Source: Geomonas silvestris | GTDB taxonomy: Bacteria; Desulfobacterota; Desulfuromonadia; Geobacterales; Geobacteraceae | Direction: 5' to 3' | Assembly: GCF_014193515.1 (NCBI RefSeq) | Contig: NZ_BLXX01000001.1 | Coordinates: 124,001-188,000 of the forward strand | Length of the DNA stretch: 64,000 bases | Shown: piece by piece, positions 12,855 to 21,448 of the stretch | How positions within the stretch are numbered: position 1 is the stretch's first letter | How the letters are laid out: every line of letters starts with the position of its first letter | The notes under the pieces: generated by a model | Database searches by the model: none | What the model saw: the letters and a program-made list of their open reading frames with translations, nothing else | Told to the model about the DNA's origin: nothing | Made by a program: the position numbers and the translations under genes

Positions 12855-12914
12855 GTAAGGCGTCAAAAAGGACAATTTCTGTCTCATAGCCCATCCGATA
12901 ATCGAAATATTTGT

Positions 12915-12944
12915 TTGACTTTTTCGTTTTTGTTAATGTATAAA
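12915..12944 (+). promoter_or_regulatory. Sigma-70-type promoter of the cytochrome operon
   Basis: TTGACT and TATAAA separated by 18 bp in a locally AT-rich stretch, about 120 bp upstream of the first riboswitch core. An imperfect inverted repeat (CTGCCAATC near 12991 with GATTGGCGGCAG near 13013) lies in the leader between them. Confidence 0.7.
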
Positions 12945-13069
12945 TAGAACGCTTTTGAATTACCCCTATTTTACCGACAGTTACATCGCTGCCAATCCTA
13001 ATTTCCTCAGTGATTGGCGGCAGTTAGATAGCACGATTCAGGGCTGCGTTCTTGCCCGCGCACCAATGA

Positions 13070-13178
13070 TAGTCGAGAAAACTCAACCATCCGCGAGGAT
13101 GGGGCGGAAAGCCTAGGGTCTCACTGAGACAGCCGGGATGCCGAAATATCATCAGATATTTTGCGCCCCGGCTTTTTT
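13070..13178 (+). promoter_or_regulatory. GEMM-I-like cyclic-dinucleotide riboswitch, copy 1, with terminator
   Basis: Conserved GEMM-I landmarks: a stem CCATCC/GGATGG capped by a GCGA (GNRA) loop, then GCGGAAAGCC, a second hairpin GTCTC/GAGAC, and ACAGCCGGGATGCCG. AGCCGGG (13131-13137) can pair with CCCGGCT (13167-13173) just before a T-run, giving a terminator as the expression platform. The base at the position of A47 in the c-di-GMP class appears to be G, and the usual 5' strand (GGGCAAACC) is not conserved. Ligand class is therefore open: c-di-GMP, cyclic AMP-GMP, or a variant such as the GGC subclass. Confidence 0.72.
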
Positions 13179-13284
13179 GCGTTCTGAACACGGAGAATAA
13201 CGACCAGGCACGGCTCAACTTTCGGAAATACCGGTTCGCTCCGAGGCTCCCCCCTTGGGAGCGGACCCCGTTTTGGATACACGA

Positions 13285-13388
13285 CAATACTCAACCATCC
13301 GCGAGGATGGGGCGGAAAGCCTAAGGGTCTCACCGAGACAGCCGGGATGCCGAACTATCACCAGATATTCGCGCCCCGGCTTTTTTTG
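13285..13388 (+). promoter_or_regulatory. GEMM-I-like riboswitch, copy 2, with terminator
   Basis: A second copy, nearly identical to the first over about 95 bp with a few substitutions and one inserted A (CTAAGGG against CTAGGG). It again ends in AGCCGGG (13340-13346) pairing with CCCGGCT (13375-13381) and seven T. It lies 90 bp before the first cytochrome ATG. Two complete switch-plus-terminator units in series mean a transcript must pass both. In Geobacter, GEMM-type switches are known upstream of multiheme cytochrome genes. Confidence 0.72.
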
Positions 13389-13478: not shown

Positions 13479-14717
13479 ATGCCCCATACGATCCACCTGA
13501 AGCGCCTACTCCTCGCCGGCTGCTGCCTCGCCCTTTGGGCCTGCGGCAAGGCAAACACCCAGGCAACCACCGTGAGCACCGTCGGCAAGCACACCGCCAA
13601 CTGGCTGGTCGAGCACCGGCGCGCCTACCAGCAGGCCCCGGCCTCCTGCACCGAGTGCCACGGCGCCGACCTGACCGGCGGCATCACCAAGATCGACTGT
13701 TTCAACCAGGGGGGGCTCGCTACCTGCCACGCCGGCGGCCACGGTCCCAGGCGCGTGCCCCACGCGCTCCCCTTCACGGCCGGGAGCCTGCACGGCCCGG
13801 TCGCCAAGCTGAACCTGGTGGACTGCCAGGTCTGCCACGGGGAGGCGGGTGGCCCGGGGACCAACCCGCGCTTCAACGTCGTGCTCGGCTCGCTGAGCGC
13901 CGGGTGCGAGACCTCCGGCTGCCACAACCTGAACAACCCCGGTCAACCGGAGCCCAACGCCGCGCACCCGGTACCGTGGAGCGGTCACGCAAGCTCCGGT
14001 AACCAGATCAACGCCTGCGCCCTGTGCCACGGCGCCGATTTTGGCGGCACCGCCTCGGGCGGTGTGGGTCCCGCCTGCCGCAGCTGCCACACCTCGCTCG
14101 CCCTGGGTAACCTCCCGGTGCCGGGGACCTGCGTCTCCTGCCACGGCAACCCGCCGGCCTCCGGGTCCCACGCGGTGCACCTCGCCATCGCGTCGATCAG
14201 CTGCGCCAGCTGCCACTCGGGGGGCGGCTCCGGGAGTGCCAACCACGGAAGCGGCACGGTCACCCTCGCCTTCCCCGGCACGCTCAACGCCAAGTCCGGC
14301 AGCGCCGCGGTTACCGGCACCAAGAGTTGCAGCGCCGTCAGCTGCCACGGTGGGATCGCCACCCCCACCTGGGGGAGCGCGGGGAGCATCAATCTCGCCA
14401 CCGACTGCCTCACATGCCACACCGACGGTACGGCGACCCCGAACAACCCGCCGCAGTACAACAGTTTCCGCAGTGGCCAGCACGCCTTTCACAATTCCAT
14501 CGGCCTCGCCTGCACCGACTGCCACGACATGACGGTCACCGTCCAGGGTGCCTCCCACTTCAGCGGTTTCGCCACCACCAGCTTCGAGCTGGCTCCCGCC
14601 GCGACCATGAGGAGCTACCTGAGCTACAATGCGACCCAGCAAAGCTGCATGCCCCCTTCCCTGGCGCCCAACGGCAACACCATCGGCGCCTGCCACAGCG
14701 ACCGCAGGTCCTGGTAG
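13479..14717 (+). CDS. Multiheme c-type cytochrome lipoprotein (CxxCH/CxxxxCH family)
   Basis: A 412-residue exported protein. The signal peptide ends in a lipobox-like LWAC, so outer-membrane lipid anchoring is likely. I count eight CxxCH motifs and two CxxxxCH motifs (CETSGCH, CSAVSCH), typical of the Geobacter CxxxxCH/CxxCH domain family. Two further Cys-His pairs (ATCH, GACH) have no near Cys partner. The start ATG at 13479 has GGGAG 7 bp upstream; the longer open frame would begin inside the second riboswitch. It is the first gene of a four-gene operon controlled by the tandem switches. Expected role: electron transfer at the outer surface. Redox partner unknown. Confidence 0.88.
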   Translation: MPHTIHLKRLLLAGCCLALWACGKANTQATTVSTVGKHTANWLVEHRRAYQQAPASCTECHGADLTGGITKIDCFNQGGLATCHAGGHGPRRVPHALPFTAGSLHGPVAKLNLVDCQVCHGEAGGPGTNPRFNVVLGSLSAGCETSGCHNLNNPGQPEPNAAHPVPWSGHASSGNQINACALCHGADFGGTASGGVGPACRSCHTSLALGNLPVPGTCVSCHGNPPASGSHAVHLAIASISCASCHSGGGSGSANHGSGTVTLAFPGTLNAKSGSAAVTGTKSCSAVSCHGGIATPTWGSAGSINLATDCLTCHTDGTATPNNPPQYNSFRSGQHAFHNSIGLACTDCHDMTVTVQGASHFSGFATTSFELAPAATMRSYLSYNATQQSCMPPSLAPNGNTIGACHSDRRSW

Positions 14718-14758: not shown

Positions 14759-17473
14759 ATGAAGATGCAACGTCTCAGATCCCTATTTGTCAGCCTCGTT
14801 TTGCTCGGCGCCCTCGGCACGGGTGCGGCCCGGGCGGTCACCGCTCCGACGGTGACCAACCTCCCGCCGGTCACGGACCGGGTCGGGACCCCGGTGCGCC
14901 TGGCCGGCGACACGAGCGGCAACCTCTACCTCACCGACCCGCGGGCCGGCGGGATCCTGGTTTTCGGCAACGACGGCAAGCTGCTGCGGAGTATCGCCAC
15001 CCTGAAAAAGCCCCAGGGGATCGCGGTGACCGCCGCCGGGGACCTGGTGGTGAGCCAGGGAACCTCGGTATCGGTACTCTCCCCCCTGGGGGTCGAGAAG
15101 TTCAAACTGGGAGCGGGAGCGGGGCAGTTCAAGATGGCCAACGGCATCGCCATCGACAACGCCGGCTACCTCTACGTGGTGGACAGCCTGGACAACTGCG
15201 TCCAGGTCTTCACCTCACAGGGGGCCCCGGTGGCGCTCTCGGGCGCCGGCGCGGGGAAGCCGCTGAACAGCTTCGGCTCGGCCGGCAAGGGTAACGGCCA
15301 GTTTTCCCAGCCAAGTGCCATCGCCTTCGAGCCGGCAAGCGGCCAGCTCGCCGTGGTGGACACCCTAAACAGCCGGGTGCAGTTCTTCACGACCACCGGG
15401 AGCTTCGTGAAGTCGATCGGCTCCGCGGGGCTTGGGTCGCTCAAGTTCGGCGCTCCGCAGGGGGTCGCCTTCGGGGCCACCGCCTCGGGGACCGTCATGT
15501 ACGTGGTGGACACCTTCCAGAGCAACATCCAGGCGATCGACCTCTCCAGCGGGACCTTCCTCAGGGTGATCGGGAGCTACGGCAAGGGGAGCGGGAAGCT
15601 GGTGGTCCCCACCGACCTCCTGTTTGACAACTTCGACGCCCGCAACCCGCGCCTGGTGGTAGCCAACGGCTTCGGGAACCTGACGCTTTTCGGGATCGAG
15701 ATCCCGGCAGGTACCGGTACCTCCGGCAACGGCCCGGCGCTTTCCATCAACACGCTGCCGCTCGCCACCAACCTCACCTCGCTCACCATAAGCGGCACGG
15801 TGGCAGCCAACGCCACGGTGAAGATCACCCCGAGCACCTCGGCCGCGGTAGGCGCGGTGAGCGGCGGGGTCACCTGGAGTGCTACGGTGACCGGCCTGGT
15901 CGCAGGCACCAACCAGTTCACCGTCACCGCCACCGACAACGCAAGCGGCGCGAGCACGAGCACCCTGGTGAGCGTCTTCGTGACCTCTTCCGGCAGCGCC
16001 GTCACCCCCTTCACAGTGAACGCGCTCCCCAGCCACACCGCGACCGCGGCCCAGACCCTGAGCGGCACCGTGCAGCCCGGATCGACCGTGACGGTGAACG
16101 GCAACCCGGCAACCGTCAGCGGCGGCACCTGGAGCTACCCGACGACCCTTACCCAGGGGCTCAACACCTTCCAGCTCACGGCGGCAAACGCCTCGTTCAG
16201 CAGCGCGAACGCCAGCATCAACATCACCCTCAACTCCGTGGTGCCGCTGCTCGATGTCGCCCTGCTGCCGACCGGGAGCACCACCAGTAACCAGCTCTTG
16301 ACCATCTCCGGCACGGTCAGCGACCTGCTCCCCTCGACGGTGCAGCTCACGGTGAACGGCCAGGCGCTCCCGGCTCTGCCGGTGGTAAACGGCTCCTTCT
16401 CCACCGGGGTCTTCCTGCAGGTGGGGAGCAACAGCATCGACGTCAAGGCGCTGGACAGCATCGGCAACCAGAGTGCCACGGTGCGCACCAGCATCACCTT
16501 CGCCCCCACGGCACCGCTGCTCACCATCGGGGTGCCGGACGGCTCCTCGGTCCCCGCCGCGGCACTCACCCTCACCGGAAGCGTGAGCGCCGGGAGCACC
16601 GTGCAGGTGAGCGTCGCCGGGGTGAGCGTCCCGGTCACGGTGAGCGGCACCAGCTGGAGCGCGCCGGTCACCCTCGCCCCGGGGACCAGCACCATCCTGG
16701 CCACGGCTACCCTCGGCTCCCTGAGCTCGACGGCACGCTCCAGCGTAAGCTACGACCCGGGCGCCCCGGCGCTCACCATCAGCGCGCCCTCGCAAAATGC
16801 CGTACTCCCCGCCGGCACCACCCAGTCGGTGAGCGTCACCGGCACGACCACCCCGGGAAGCAGCCTGCTCGCCACCCTGGACGGGACGAACCTGACCGTG
16901 AGCGTCGCCGCGAACGGCGCCTTCGCCGTGCCGCTTGGCAACCTGGCCATCGGCAGCCACACCCTCTCGCTCACCGCCCTCGATGCCCTGGGGAACTCGG
17001 CGAGCGCGCTGCGCAGCATCGTGGTGGCCGACCCGACACCGCCGCCGGTCACCCTAGACGCGACCAACCCGCTCAAGCTGAGCGTCGGATCCGGGGCGAC
17101 CCTGGTGGTCCGCGACAAAAACGGGCCGGTGGCGGGCGCGGTCACCACCCAGAACGGGGTCAGCACCCTGGATCTCTCCGGCGCGAGTTACGACCCGGCC
17201 ACCCTGAGCGTCACCGCGGTCACCCCCACCGGCGCCACCACCCGAAACGGCGTGCTCACCCCGACGGCGATCGCCGGGCAGGTCGGCGTCCCCGCCATCG
17301 GCGACGCGCTCGAGGCGCTCAAGATCGCCACGGGGGCGCGGCCGGCTGGCCTTCTGGAGAAGATGCACGGCGACGTGGCCCCCCTGGCCAACGGCACCCC
17401 CCTTCCCGACGGGAAGATCGACATCGAGGACGTCGTGGTCATCATGATGCGCGTCGTCGGCAAGCCCTGGTAG
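14759..17473 (+). CDS. NHL beta-propeller and Ig-like repeat protein with C-terminal dockerin-like tail
   Basis: A 904-residue secreted protein. After a signal peptide (to about residue 24) comes an NHL-type beta-propeller (about 25-325, repeats such as GQFKMANGIAIDNAGYLYVV). About five Ig-like/Big-type domains follow (about 325-760), and the C-terminal region holds IGDALEALKIATG and then PDGKIDIEDVVVIMMRV, resembling the two halves of a Geobacter-type dockerin. GGAG lies 8 bp before the ATG at 14759; the much longer open frame upstream overlaps the cytochrome gene and is rejected. It contains no heme motif. It probably acts as an extracellular scaffold. The partner may be the lipoprotein encoded directly downstream. 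Confidence 0.85.
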   Translation: MKMQRLRSLFVSLVLLGALGTGAARAVTAPTVTNLPPVTDRVGTPVRLAGDTSGNLYLTDPRAGGILVFGNDGKLLRSIATLKKPQGIAVTAAGDLVVSQGTSVSVLSPLGVEKFKLGAGAGQFKMANGIAIDNAGYLYVVDSLDNCVQVFTSQGAPVALSGAGAGKPLNSFGSAGKGNGQFSQPSAIAFEPASGQLAVVDTLNSRVQFFTTTGSFVKSIGSAGLGSLKFGAPQGVAFGATASGTVMYVVDTFQSNIQAIDLSSGTFLRVIGSYGKGSGKLVVPTDLLFDNFDARNPRLVVANGFGNLTLFGIEIPAGTGTSGNGPALSINTLPLATNLTSLTISGTVAANATVKITPSTSAAVGAVSGGVTWSATVTGLVAGTNQFTVTATDNASGASTSTLVSVFVTSSGSAVTPFTVNALPSHTATAAQTLSGTVQPGSTVTVNGNPATVSGGTWSYPTTLTQGLNTFQLTAANASFSSANASINITLNSVVPLLDVALLPTGSTTSNQLLTISGTVSDLLPSTVQLTVNGQALPALPVVNGSFSTGVFLQVGSNSIDVKALDSIGNQSATVRTSITFAPTAPLLTIGVPDGSSVPAAALTLTGSVSAGSTVQVSVAGVSVPVTVSGTSWSAPVTLAPGTSTILATATLGSLSSTARSSVSYDPGAPALTISAPSQNAVLPAGTTQSVSVTGTTTPGSSLLATLDGTNLTVSVAANGAFAVPLGNLAIGSHTLSLTALDALGNSASALRSIVVADPTPPPVTLDATNPLKLSVGSGATLVVRDKNGPVAGAVTTQNGVSTLDLSGASYDPATLSVTAVTPTGATTRNGVLTPTAIAGQVGVPAIGDALEALKIATGARPAGLLEKMHGDVAPLANGTPLPDGKIDIEDVVVIMMRVVGKPW

Positions 17474-18058: not shown

Positions 18059-21000
18059 ATGAACAACGTGATAGTAAAGACTCTGATGCTCGGCATGCTC
18101 TGCCTGCTGGCCCCCTCTACAGCACGCGCCGTGGTGGTCGACTCCCCCCATGGCAGCGCCGACGGGTACAGCTGCGCCAACTGCCACACGGGCCATATCA
18201 CGCTGGGGAGCACCGGGTTCAACAACATCTGTCTGACCTGCCACCGCCCAGGTGTCCCGGTATCCGGGCGCAAGCCGTTCGCCCCGGGCGACGCCGCCGA
18301 CCCCTTCGGCCTGTACAGCGCGGCGAGCCCGGAGAGGCTCTACCAGACCTCGCACCGCTGGGACGGCCCCGACACCGCCCCCTGGGCCGGCGCACAGCCG
18401 CCGGTCTTCGCCGGCATGACCGGGGTGCGCGGGCGCACCGGGGCCCAGATGGCCTGCGTGCGCTGCCACAACCAGCACGACAACTCGCTCCCGCCGTTTC
18501 TGAGGATGGCCAACGACCAGGACCAGATGTGCCTGGACTGCCACAGAAGCCGCAACCAGAGAAACCAGGCAAGCGGCACCCACCCGGTCAACTTCGCCTA
18601 CGGCGGGGCCGACTCGAAGGCCGTCTTGCGCCCCGCGGAATACTTCAACCCGCCGCTGAACGCGAACCCGGCCAACGCCTCCTCGGATCTGGGGAGCAAG
18701 TTCAAGGGGGGGAAACTGGTCTGCTCCACCTGCCACGGGGTGCACTACGCCGACTCGAGCAGTGCGACCTTCGACTCCTTCAGCTCATCGAACTCGCTCA
18801 AAAAGGGGGACGGCTACCTCTTGCGCACCGACCTGCGCGGGGCCCAGGTGGCGGTCGGGGCGGCGGATAACGCCAACATCTGCCTCAACTGCCACGCCGG
18901 GAAGAAGAACCACAACAACCACGGCCAGGACGTGCAGTGCACCGACTGCCACGGCGCCCACGTCACCCCCGCCGACGGCAGCGCCCCGAACGGCTTCTTG
19001 ATCTGGCGCTACATGAACATCTCGAGCTTCGCCGGCAAGGTGCGCAACAAGCCGGTCTTCTCGAGCGCCACCTCGATGCTCTCGGCGAACTTCAAGGACC
19101 CCAACGGCACCGGCATCTGCCAAGCCTGCCACGTGGTCCCGGCCGGCGTCGCCCCGGCCCACGACCTCCCCAGCGCCCAGGCGCGCGACTGCGTCGGGTG
19201 CCACAACCACAACAGCCAGGCCGGCTCCTTCTCGGGAGGGTGCACCTCCTGCCACGGCTACCCGATCGCCTCCACCCGGATCGGCGGTCCCGACGGCCTG
19301 GCCGCACCGGCCACCGGTGCGCTCGGCGCCAGTCCGGCCAGCGCCGGCGCCCACGCGACCCACGTGACCGCGCGCTCGATCCAGTGCCTTGCCTGCCACA
19401 GCGGCTACACCACGAACCAGATGGGGAACGGCAAGATCGAGATGGGCTTCGGGGTCTCGCCTCAAACCTGGAACGGGTTCGTCTCGCAGGTAACCACCGG
19501 CACCATCTACGTGAACAGCAGCCTGAACGCCGGCTACAGCTGGAGCGCCCAGGCCGGGACAACGCTGAACCAGGCGCCCGGCCAGGCGATCAGCTGCAGC
19601 ATCTACTGCCACGGCTCCACGCTTTCCGGCGGCAGCACCACACGCCCGCAGTGGACCGGCACGAGCCAGGCCGCCTGCGGCAGCTGCCACGGCGCCAGCG
19701 CCGCCACTCCCCCCACGACCGGCGGCCACCTGCGCCACGCGGGAAGCGGGACGACGGGCCTTGCGCTCGCCTGCTCCTCCTGCCACGGCTCCCCCGGCTC
19801 CACCGGGCACGTGGACGGCAGCGTCGCCTGGAACGTAAGCCCCCTCGCCTCCCAGGGGGGCGCCCCCCAGTACCGCGGCCTCACGGTCGGGACCACCGGC
19901 CAGGCCGCGCCCAGCGCAAGCTACGGCCAGTGCTCGAACCTCTACTGCCACGGCGGCAAGGCGGTCACCTGGGGAGGTCCGGCCCTTCCCGCGGACTGCA
20001 GCGGCTGCCACGGCGGCCTCGCTACCGGCCCGGACTACGCCAACGGCACCCCCAAGGCGAACAGCCACGCGAGACACGTGGTGGCCAACGGGCTTTCCTG
20101 CAACCTGTGCCACAGCTCGGTCGTGGACGCCTCCGGCGCGATCGTGAACCGCTCCCTGCACGCTGACCAGGTCTACGAGGTGCTCCAAGGCGGCAGCGCG
20201 AGCTTCGCGGTGACCGTGGCCGGAAACGCCTCCACGCCCACCCAGTGCAGCAACATAAGTTGCCACGGCGGCACCGGCACGGTTGCCACCTGGGGCCAGA
20301 GCCTCAACTGCCAGGACTGCCACGGCGCGGCGAGCGATCTGGACAACTTCAGCGGCAGTTTCTGGAACAACGGCATCGTCGGCAAGGTGAACAGCTCCGA
20401 GTGGCTCTCGACCGGCCACGGCGCGGCCGCCGCCTACCGCTCCGGCAACCCGGGGGCGAACTTCGGGCGCAACGGCAACCTGCGCCAGTGCGAGTTCTGC
20501 CACGATCCGGGCGTCCCCCACAAGCTGGCCGGCAACGCCTTCCGGCTGCTCAACTACTCCTCGGCCGCCTGGGGGCGCAACCAGGTCTGCCAGAGCTGCC
20601 ACGCCCCCGGTGCCGCCGGGATAACCGTGAACGGCACCCTGATCACCTCGAGCGTGAAGATCGGCTCGACGCACCTGGGGACCAAGCACGGCGCCGGTAA
20701 CAGCGGCGGCCAGTTCTGCTGGGACTGCCACGACGCCCACGGCGACGGCAACGACTACATGATGCACAGCCAGGTGGCCAAGGGGTCCGACCGCACAACC
20801 GGCGCCCCGAGCCAGACGGTCGCGGTAAGCTTCACCCTGGCCGCCCCCGGCGCCCCCTCCTGGAACGACTTCGTGAAACCGGGACCGGCCTTCAACGGCA
20901 TCTGCCAGGTCTGCCACACGAGCACCGCCCACTTCACGGCGGGCTCCTACGACACCACCCACAACCCCGGCGGCAGCTGCGTTGCCTGCCACAGCCACAC

Positions 21001-21448
21001 CGGAAGCAGCACTAACCTCGCCTTCGAACCGGGCGGGGTCTGCGACACCTGCCACGGCTATCCGCCGGCGCCGCGCAAGGTAACCGGCACGCTCACCTTC
21101 GGCGTGCAGGGGAACTGGTCGAGCGCCCGTTTCGAGGACTACTCGGGCGGGGGCGGCGCGCACCTGGTGGCGGCGCACATCCCGAAGAACGCCAAGGCCT
21201 CCCAGGGGTGGAGCAACTGCACCCCCTGCCACAACGGGGGCTCGGCTGCACACACCACGGCACAGCCGCTTAAGAGCCACGTGGAGAACGTGAGCGTCAA
21301 GATCGACCAGAAGCTGCGCCTCGCAGGCGACCTGCAGGCGAGCTACTCCAGCGCACGCCTGGTATCGGGCGGCGCCAACAGGTCCGGCAGCTGCTTCAAC
21401 GTGGCCTGCCACTTCGCTCCGACTCCCAAGTGGAGCATCGAGCGCTAA
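18059..21448 (+). CDS. Large multiheme c-type cytochrome (about 27 heme motifs)
   Basis: A 1129-residue secreted cytochrome. A signal peptide (cleavage after ARA, residue 24) is followed by heme motifs along the entire chain. I count 23 CxxCH, three CxxxxCH (CSNLYCH, CSNISCH, CFNVACH) and one CxxxCH (CSIYCH). Early modules resemble doubled-CxxCH cytochromes; later ones resemble the CxxxxCH/CxxCH family. Many extra His residues could be distal ligands. AGGAG lies 5 bp before the ATG. It is the last gene of the riboswitch-controlled operon and is followed by a strong terminator. Expected role: long-range extracellular electron conduction. It does not match OmcS, OmcZ or OmcB in size or heme number as I know them. 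Confidence 0.9.
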   Translation: MNNVIVKTLMLGMLCLLAPSTARAVVVDSPHGSADGYSCANCHTGHITLGSTGFNNICLTCHRPGVPVSGRKPFAPGDAADPFGLYSAASPERLYQTSHRWDGPDTAPWAGAQPPVFAGMTGVRGRTGAQMACVRCHNQHDNSLPPFLRMANDQDQMCLDCHRSRNQRNQASGTHPVNFAYGGADSKAVLRPAEYFNPPLNANPANASSDLGSKFKGGKLVCSTCHGVHYADSSSATFDSFSSSNSLKKGDGYLLRTDLRGAQVAVGAADNANICLNCHAGKKNHNNHGQDVQCTDCHGAHVTPADGSAPNGFLIWRYMNISSFAGKVRNKPVFSSATSMLSANFKDPNGTGICQACHVVPAGVAPAHDLPSAQARDCVGCHNHNSQAGSFSGGCTSCHGYPIASTRIGGPDGLAAPATGALGASPASAGAHATHVTARSIQCLACHSGYTTNQMGNGKIEMGFGVSPQTWNGFVSQVTTGTIYVNSSLNAGYSWSAQAGTTLNQAPGQAISCSIYCHGSTLSGGSTTRPQWTGTSQAACGSCHGASAATPPTTGGHLRHAGSGTTGLALACSSCHGSPGSTGHVDGSVAWNVSPLASQGGAPQYRGLTVGTTGQAAPSASYGQCSNLYCHGGKAVTWGGPALPADCSGCHGGLATGPDYANGTPKANSHARHVVANGLSCNLCHSSVVDASGAIVNRSLHADQVYEVLQGGSASFAVTVAGNASTPTQCSNISCHGGTGTVATWGQSLNCQDCHGAASDLDNFSGSFWNNGIVGKVNSSEWLSTGHGAAAAYRSGNPGANFGRNGNLRQCEFCHDPGVPHKLAGNAFRLLNYSSAAWGRNQVCQSCHAPGAAGITVNGTLITSSVKIGSTHLGTKHGAGNSGGQFCWDCHDAHGDGNDYMMHSQVAKGSDRTTGAPSQTVAVSFTLAAPGAPSWNDFVKPGPAFNGICQVCHTSTAHFTAGSYDTTHNPGGSCVACHSHTGSSTNLAFEPGGVCDTCHGYPPAPRKVTGTLTFGVQGNWSSARFEDYSGGGGAHLVAAHIPKNAKASQGWSNCTPCHNGGSAAHTTAQPLKSHVENVSVKIDQKLRLAGDLQASYSSARLVSGGANRSGSCFNVACHFAPTPKWSIER

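What the first reader, a model, noticed from the sequence alone, without database searches (positions are those of the whole stretch)
13070..13388. Tandem GEMM-like riboswitches, each with its own terminator
Two nearly identical aptamer-plus-terminator units lie in series before a multiheme cytochrome operon. The base equivalent to A47 looks like G and the canonical 5' core strand is absent, so the ligand may not be c-di-GMP. Geobacter GEMM switches for cyclic AMP-GMP control exoelectrogenesis genes, and GGC/UAU variants have been described. Series arrangement would give a sharper response.
Basis: partly seen in the sequence, partly recalled or inferred. Interest (0 to 1): 0.82.

Follow-up and report, generated by a model that had tools for sequence, protein, structure and literature searches.

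The report
Tandem cGAMP riboswitches before cytochrome operon
Two complete RNA switches of a known kind, very probably sensing the bacterial signal cyclic GMP-AMP, sit one after the other before genes for electron-carrying proteins in a relative of Geobacter; the arrangement is real but already known from Geobacter, so it is a new example rather than a new kind.

Summary
Two GEMM-I aptamers (RF01051: 45.6 and 41.0 bits, gathering 35) lie at 13071-13145 and 13279-13354. Each is followed by a terminator built on the aptamer's own 3' strand, before an operon with two multiheme cytochromes. The odd G is position 46, which pairs with C at position 21, a compensated swap. The informative base is position 20: it is A, the published GEMM-Ib mark for 3',3'-cGAMP. 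The genome (probably Geomonas) has 27 RF01051 hits, 22 with A20 and 5 with G20, and two GGDEF enzymes with the Hypr (cGAMP synthase) serine. Best explanation: two cGAMP-activated ON switches in series, an AND gate on one ligand that mainly squares the leak and steepens the response modestly. Tandem GEMM-Ib switches before an outer-membrane cytochrome operon are published for G. sulfurreducens, so this is a new member of a known kind. All 19 genomes of the genus examined have at least one array. Four of 34 arrays have A20 in copy 1 and G20 in copy 2, a possible natural cGAMP AND c-di-GMP gate worth testing.

The parts
12915..12944 (+). candidate promoter: TTGACT, 18-nt spacer, TATAAA (start near 12952, inferred)
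   Evidence: sequence; 12905-12960 is 45/56 identical to G. limicola against 59% and 61% on either side. Not called by the consensus scan, which requires a T at position 6 of the second hexamer
13067..13152 (+). unit 1 aptamer (Rfam match 13071-13145)
   Evidence: RF01051 45.6 bits; 82/86 identical to G. limicola
13081..13083 (+). unit 1 core 5' strand A20-C21-U22
   Evidence: Rfam alignment, letters checked; Vc2 numbering partly recalled
13106..13108 (+). unit 1 core 3' strand G45-G46-A47; G46 pairs with C21, A47 is A
13087..13102 (+). unit 1 P1b hairpin CCAUCC-GCGA-GGAUGG (GNRA loop)
   Evidence: C-G to U-A compensation in G. limicola
13131..13178 (+). unit 1 terminator: 5' arm is the aptamer 3' strand (AGCCGGG), U-run 13173-13178
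   Evidence: fold -24.3 kcal/mol, z -5.6
13275..13361 (+). unit 2 aptamer (Rfam match 13279-13354)
   Evidence: RF01051 41.0 bits; 83/87 identical to G. limicola
13289..13291 (+). unit 2 core 5' strand A20-C21-U22
13314..13316 (+). unit 2 core 3' strand G45-G46-A47
13340..13387 (+). unit 2 terminator, U-run 13381-13387
   Evidence: fold -21.7 kcal/mol, z -4.6
13479..14717 (+). first gene: multiheme cytochrome c, 412 aa, 8 CXXCH, lipoprotein-like start (by eye)
   Evidence: PF14522; heme count
14759..17473 (+). NHL-repeat and bacterial Ig-domain protein (start codon inferred; the frame was scanned from 14327)
   Evidence: PF01436, PF09136, PF17936
17479..18015 (+). 178-aa protein, lipoprotein-like start (by eye), no Pfam match
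18059..21448 (+). multiheme cytochrome c, 1129 aa, 23 CXXCH
   Evidence: PF14522, PF22113 (MtrC/MtrF-like), PF09698; heme count

Best explanation
Two complete GEMM-Ib riboswitches for 3',3'-cGAMP (cyclic AMP-GMP) in series, both transcriptional ON switches, gate an extracellular-electron-transfer operon. Transcription starts near 12952. Without ligand the 3' strand of each aptamer (AGCCGGG...) is taken up by a stronger terminator hairpin and RNA polymerase stops at the U-run. With cGAMP bound the aptamer keeps that strand and polymerase reads on. RNA reaching the cytochrome genes must pass both decisions, so the pair is an AND gate on one ligand: the basal leak is squared, the half-point shifts up about twofold and the response steepens slightly. 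Shown here: aptamers, A20, compensated core pair, mutually exclusive terminators, conservation of both copies with a sister species, Hypr-type enzymes in the genome. Inferred: ligand, ON direction, series read-through, transcription start, operon membership.
For: RF01051 above gathering for both units. Position 20 is A in both; A20G in Gmet_0970 changes selectivity from cGAMP to c-di-GMP (PMC6456294, legend passage). In this genome 22 of 27 hits have A20 and 5 have G20. Of the 21 hits with the ACU core, 20 have a U-run terminator with 10-19 pairs between the aptamer 3' strand and the tail; L022 has no U-run (local folds). Terminator fold -45.7 and -41.6 kcal/mol against -24.6 and -22.0 with P1, core and P1b enforced, without ligand or tertiary energy. 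Two of 31 GGDEF domains carry serine at the Hypr position: L046, whose best PDB match is 6d9m, and L058 with a GGDDF motif as described for GSU1937. Against G. limicola, aptamers are 95% identical, terminators 89 and 96%, linker 71%, 5' leader 61%; unit 1 matches unit 1 (93%) and unit 2 matches unit 2 (96%) better than the copies match within each species (90% and 85%), and both G. limicola units fold alike (z -4.1, -5.2). The tandem before OmcAHG in G. sulfurreducens loses detectable RNA by the second switch in a gacA mutant (PMC6456294 section 8).
Against: No ligand or read-through data for this organism. Unit 1 carries two changes (GUCGAG for the GACGAC of G. limicola) that allow a 3-bp GAG/CUC hairpin over the binding strand in computed folds, so unit 1 may be weaker. 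The proposed promoter and the terminators were not called by the simple scan, which did call a weak plus-strand promoter match (9 of 12) inside unit 1 at 13124-13152. In Geomonas sp. Red32 the two copies are nearer to each other (87%) than to the window's (83-84%), so the age of the pair is shown only for the window and G. limicola. The pair is not fixed at this gene: of nine close homologues of the first gene (L125-L133), only G. limicola has it directly upstream; L127 has a pair after the gene and another about 4 kb upstream, L126 and L128 one copy after it, L129 and L130 one copy about 2 kb upstream, L131-L133 none in the stretch held; four homologues with 1.5-kb flanks (L098-L101) also gave none.
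Confidence: 0.87

Rival explanations
1. Both units mainly sense c-di-GMP, as the Rfam family name suggests, or respond to both nucleotides.
For: RF01051 is the c-di-GMP-I model. A switch sensitive to both is reported for the omcST operon of G. sulfurreducens (PMC6456294 section 8). The base equivalent to G20 is called a selectivity factor rather than a hard filter (PMC9262584, passage).
Against: Position 20 is A in both; the genome encodes Hypr-type enzymes; other copies in the genome keep G20.
Confidence: 0.08
2. Only one unit is a working switch; the other is a decaying duplicate that acts as a constant terminator or is always open.
For: Unit 1 can form a competing GAG/CUC hairpin over the core strand. 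A degenerate copy does exist in another array of this genome (L145 8723-8801, 32.7 bits with model R1).
Against: Both aptamers and both terminators are 89-96% identical to G. limicola while linker (71%) and leader (61%) drift; the core bases are intact in both.
Confidence: 0.1
3. The two units are not on one transcript: a second promoter makes unit 2 a separate single switch.
For: 95 nt lie between the units, and the scan calls a weak plus-strand promoter match (CTGAGA, 17 nt, TATCAT; 9 of 12) inside unit 1 at 13124-13152 (2 found in the region on both strands, 0.4 expected).
Against: That match is made of the conserved aptamer and terminator bases themselves, and no plus-strand match lies in the linker 13180-13274. 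In G. sulfurreducens RNA is lost by the second unit when the synthase is deleted.
Confidence: 0.06

Closest known systems
GEMM-Ib (cGAMP) tandem riboswitch before GSU2885-GSU2882 (OmcAHG), Geobacter sulfurreducens (PMC6456294, section 8 read)
   Same: two GEMM-Ib switches in series before an outer-membrane multiheme cytochrome operon; RNA falls away along the tandem when the cGAMP synthase is deleted
   Different: another genus; orthology of the operons was not tested, as no locus labelled G. sulfurreducens was among the 13 returned by the named-genome search
GSU1761 (pgcA) single cGAMP riboswitch, G. sulfurreducens (PMC6456294 passages; PMC8835794 first sixth and passages)
   Same: cGAMP-selective GEMM-Ib aptamer, ligand-stabilised anti-terminator
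   Different: single copy in the reporter work; its sequence was not compared here
Triple-tandem c-di-GMP-I riboswitch Bc3-5, Bacillus thuringiensis (PMC4759541, passages)
   Same: complete units in series, each with its own terminator; more stringent with each added copy
   Different: c-di-GMP ligand, three copies, Gram-positive host
347 doublets and 12 triplets of c-di-GMP-I riboswitches (PMC9481103, section 26 and passages)
   Same: the same architecture, called pseudo-cooperative
   Different: survey; ligand subclass of the doublets not given in the passages read

Membership tests
c-di-GMP-I / GEMM-I (RF01051) | covariance score above gathering | tested here: met
   45.6 and 41.0 against 35
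c-di-GMP-I / GEMM-I (RF01051) | core pairs, A47 and GNRA-capped P1b kept | tested here: met
   C21-G46, U22.G45, A47, GCGA loop
GEMM-Ib (cGAMP subclass) | A at position 20 | tested here: met
   both units A; 22 of 27 hits in the genome; mapping of model column to Vc2 number partly recalled
GEMM-Ib (cGAMP subclass) | preferential binding of 3',3'-cGAMP | not testable with these tools
   needs in-line probing
GEMM-Ib (cGAMP subclass) | Hypr GGDEF (active-site Ser) in the genome | tested here: met
   2 of 31 GGDEF domains, L046 and L058; 28 have Asp, L056 is degenerate
c-di-GMP-I-GGC (RF03167) | covariance score above gathering | tested here: not met
   44.8 and 39.4 against 59
c-di-GMP-I-UAU | covariance score above gathering | tested here: not met
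   no match at gathering in the window and no left-out clan member noted; the score itself was not shown
complete tandem (pseudo-cooperative) riboswitches | two whole units, each aptamer plus expression platform, same strand | tested here: met
complete tandem (pseudo-cooperative) riboswitches | both units on one leader transcript | not testable with these tools
   inferred from a candidate promoter upstream of unit 1
complete tandem (pseudo-cooperative) riboswitches | steeper dose response than one copy | not testable with these tools
   only a model: 10-90% range 81-fold to 40-61-fold

The most novel reading that the evidence does not exclude
The window's array belongs to a genus-wide set of tandem GEMM switches in which ligand logic can change by one base in one copy. 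In sister species the second copy carries G20 instead of A20 in at least two settings, which would turn a one-signal (cGAMP AND cGAMP) gate into a two-signal (cGAMP AND c-di-GMP) coincidence detector before cytochrome genes. In the window itself, the changed 5' strand of unit 1 may have detuned one copy so that the two have different thresholds.
Probability: 0.3. Interest if true: 0.6.

Novelty: new member of a known kind. Interest (0 to 1): 0.33.

Why it matters
It adds a clear case, outside Geobacter sulfurreducens, of serial cGAMP-type switches on multiheme cytochrome genes, and shows that such arrays are common in the genus: each of 19 genomes examined has at least one, and 72 of 328 hits lie in arrays (lower bounds, since at most 150 candidates per genome were scored). 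The side finding of four arrays with A20 in the first copy and G20 in the second would, if confirmed, be a natural AND gate for two second messengers whose effects are described as opposing in G. sulfurreducens (PMC6456294 section 8), and gives a directly testable question.

Tried and rejected
Rejected: A47 substitution (a register error); GGC variant (below gathering); the window units as a mixed-ligand pair (both A20). A search of viral contigs with the first gene gave no relative. The named-genome search with six homologues returned 13 loci, none labelled G. sulfurreducens, so no direct link to GSU2885 could be drawn. The first look for the Hypr residue was built on the wrong position (next to the Asn of the ND motif); the right one (the Asp of GHxxGD in PleD, numbering recalled) was then read by eye from the outputs, since the regular expression printed no rows. 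A PDB search with the 1129-aa cytochrome found nothing at E 0.001. The consensus scan reported neither the proposed promoter nor the terminators. Seven of 39 relatives and ten of 39 had no match to the cytochromes; most other matches there are partial and were not followed.

Full report
What is there. Two RF01051 (c-di-GMP-I, GEMM-I) matches pass the gathering score of 35 bits: 13071-13145 (45.6 bits, E 1e-5) and 13279-13354 (41.0 bits, E 1.4e-4); they are the only 2 matches at gathering in the 64-kb window. The two units with terminators agree at 103 of 115 aligned positions. Both whole units and both terminators fold better than all 200 dinucleotide shuffles; the aptamers alone are matched by 2 and 6 of 200 shuffles. 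The simple pattern scan called neither terminator.

The register. In the Rfam alignment the consensus 5' core AAaGGCAAAcc faces AAAACUCAACC (unit 1) and AAUACUCAACC (unit 2), and the 3' core GACGCAAAgCc faces GGCGGAAAGCC in both. The changes are G20 to A, G21-C46 to C21-G46 and C22-G45 to U22.G45. The base after the core pair, A47, is A (letters checked). Over the 27 hits of the window's genome the combinations are: A20 with C21-G46 and U22.G45, 21; G20 with G21-C46 and C22-G45, 3; G20 with G21-C46 and U22-A45, 2; A20 with G21-C46 and U22-A45, 1; A47 is A in 27 of 27. The 27 are paralogues, so these are not 27 independent events. Mapping the model columns to Vc2 numbers rests partly on recall of the Vc2 structure; the papers confirm only that position 20 is the selectivity base (passages).

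The ligand. PMC6456294 (passages; section 8 in full) says that many GEMM-I riboswitches of Geobacter select cGAMP and that A20G in Gmet_0970 changes the selectivity to c-di-GMP. Both window units have A20. The signal can probably be made: the genome has 34 GGDEF matches, which I count as 31 domains after joining three split ones. Two carry serine at the Hypr position, 28 carry Asp and L056 is degenerate (read by eye). L046, a receiver-plus-GGDEF protein, has 6d9m as its best PDB match (E 1.9e-67), with GHLIGS facing GHLVGS; the entry's title, an endolysin fusion of a receiver and GAF-domain cyclase, fits the G. metallireducens Hypr structure of PMC6456294, but that identity is recalled. L058 has GYAKGS and GGDDF, the features described for the second synthase GSU1937 (PMC8835794, part 1 of 6 and passages). 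Orthology to the G. sulfurreducens enzymes was not tested further.

The switch. The terminator's 5' arm, AGCCGGG, is the 3' strand of the aptamer, so the two folds exclude each other. Without ligand the terminator fold is far better (-45.7 and -41.6 against -24.6 and -22.0 kcal/mol with P1, core and P1b enforced; tertiary contacts and ligand not counted). That fits an ON switch decided during transcription, as stated for the GSU1761 riboswitch (PMC6456294, passage). Of the 21 hits with the ACU core, 20 have such a terminator (10-19 pairs between aptamer 3' strand and tail in local folds, a few with an interrupted U-run) and L022 has no U-run; of the other six, L002, L003 and L005 have no U-run within 90 nt, while L001, L004 and L011 have one at +79, +69 and +49 with 11, 3 and 12 such pairs.

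Two in series. For independent units, read-through multiplies. For single-unit leaks of 0, 5, 10 and 20% the 10-90% ligand range falls from 81-fold to 40, 45, 51 and 61-fold; a 5% leak becomes 0.25%, and a maximum of 80% becomes 64% (model only). Stringency gains more than steepness. In B. thuringiensis a triple c-di-GMP-I array was more stringent than double, and double than single (PMC4759541, passages).

Conservation. Against G. limicola the aptamers are 95% identical (82/86, 83/87), terminators 24/27 and 26/27, the region 12905-12960 45/56, linker 67/95, 5' leader 65/107, and the stretch between unit 2 and the first gene 74/90. Unit 1 is nearest to unit 1 (106/114) and unit 2 to unit 2 (109/114), and P1b of unit 1 shows a compensated C-G to U-A change. 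Both copies are therefore older than this split and were kept. In Red32 the two copies are nearer to each other (102/117) than to those of the window (83-84%), so no older age is shown. At other close homologues of the first gene the switches differ in number and place (see evidence against).

Spread. In 19 genomes of the genus (own and 18 others) I counted 328 hits; 34 same-strand arrays (next start minus last end at most 400) hold 72 of them, and each of the 19 genomes has at least one. These are lower bounds: only the best 150 of about 290-490 first-look candidates per genome were scored, and one genome is 85% complete. The arrays of sister species are not independent. All 34 arrays were fetched and typed with a model built from the 27 own hits: 18 have A20 throughout, 12 have G20 throughout and 4 have A20 first and G20 second (L158, L159, L162, L169). 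By model coordinates two arrays gain a member: a degenerate copy in C6 of the own genome and a third copy in L154. Outside the genus, G019 has an A20 unit followed 72 nt later by an ordinary GGC c-di-GMP unit (L139).

What is known. G. sulfurreducens has 17 GEMM-I riboswitches, several in tandem; in the tandem before OmcAHG (GSU2885-2882) RNA is not detectable by the second unit when gacA is deleted, and the operon falls 16-fold (PMC6456294 section 8). A survey lists 347 doublets and 12 triplets of c-di-GMP-I (PMC9481103 section 26), and another finds tandem c-di-GMP switches enriched in Thermodesulfobacteriota and Deinococcota (PMC12452182, passages). A search for 'Geomonas' with 'riboswitch' in the held library gave one paper, not read. 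In the passages of PMC9481103 that I saw, no c-di-GMP with c-AMP-GMP pair is listed among the logic gates; I did not read its tables in full and made no search aimed at such pairs, so I do not claim that they are unreported. Kellenberger 2015 is not held; Nelson 2015 was not requested.

Verdict. A well-supported new member of a known kind: tandem cGAMP-type ON switches of GEMM-Ib. The more novel lead, two-signal arrays in sister species, lies outside the window. After checking against the calls I lowered the main confidence from 0.88 to 0.87 and raised the separate-transcript rival from 0.05 to 0.06, because the scan does report a weak plus-strand promoter match inside unit 1.

Noticed in passing
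L158 (G015), L159 (G007), L162 (G009), L169 (G006): Four of 34 arrays in the genus have A20 in the first copy and G20 in the second within the same GEMM-Ib background, predicting a cGAMP AND c-di-GMP gate. For L158, L159 and L162 the next gene encodes a protein with CXXCH motifs; for L169 it was not looked at.
   Followed up: partly
L139 917-1173 (G019, another genus): A cGAMP-type unit with terminator is followed 72 nt later by an ordinary GGC c-di-GMP-I aptamer, before a secreted-looking protein (by eye; no domain search).
   Followed up: partly
L145 8115-8801, minus strand (own genome, contig C6): Three cGAMP-type units in series plus a degenerate fourth copy (32.7 bits with model R1) upstream of a TTGACT-TATAGT promoter-like site (by eye), before a proline-rich protein with a CXXCH motif.
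   Followed up: partly
L144 10538-10996, minus strand (own genome, contig C11): A second two-copy cGAMP-type array in the own genome, with a wider gap of about 290 nt; G. limicola has an array of the same type and gap (L143).
   Followed up: no
L022 (own genome, C1:104763-104839, minus): The only ACU-core hit of 21 without a U-run; by eye its 3' strand GCCAG can pair with CUGGC shortly before an ATG, perhaps control of translation.
   Followed up: no
window 13071-13084: Unit 1 differs from G. limicola at two bases (13073, 13077) that allow a 3-bp GAG/CUC hairpin over the binding strand; possible detuning of this copy.
   Followed up: partly
window 12988-13021: A hairpin in the 5' leader before unit 1 (CUGCCAAUC region with GAUUGGCGGCAG); the G. 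limicola leader folds a 9-bp stem at the same place with a different 5' arm. Weak by itself: 4 and 10 of 200 shuffles of the leaders fold as well.
   Followed up: partly
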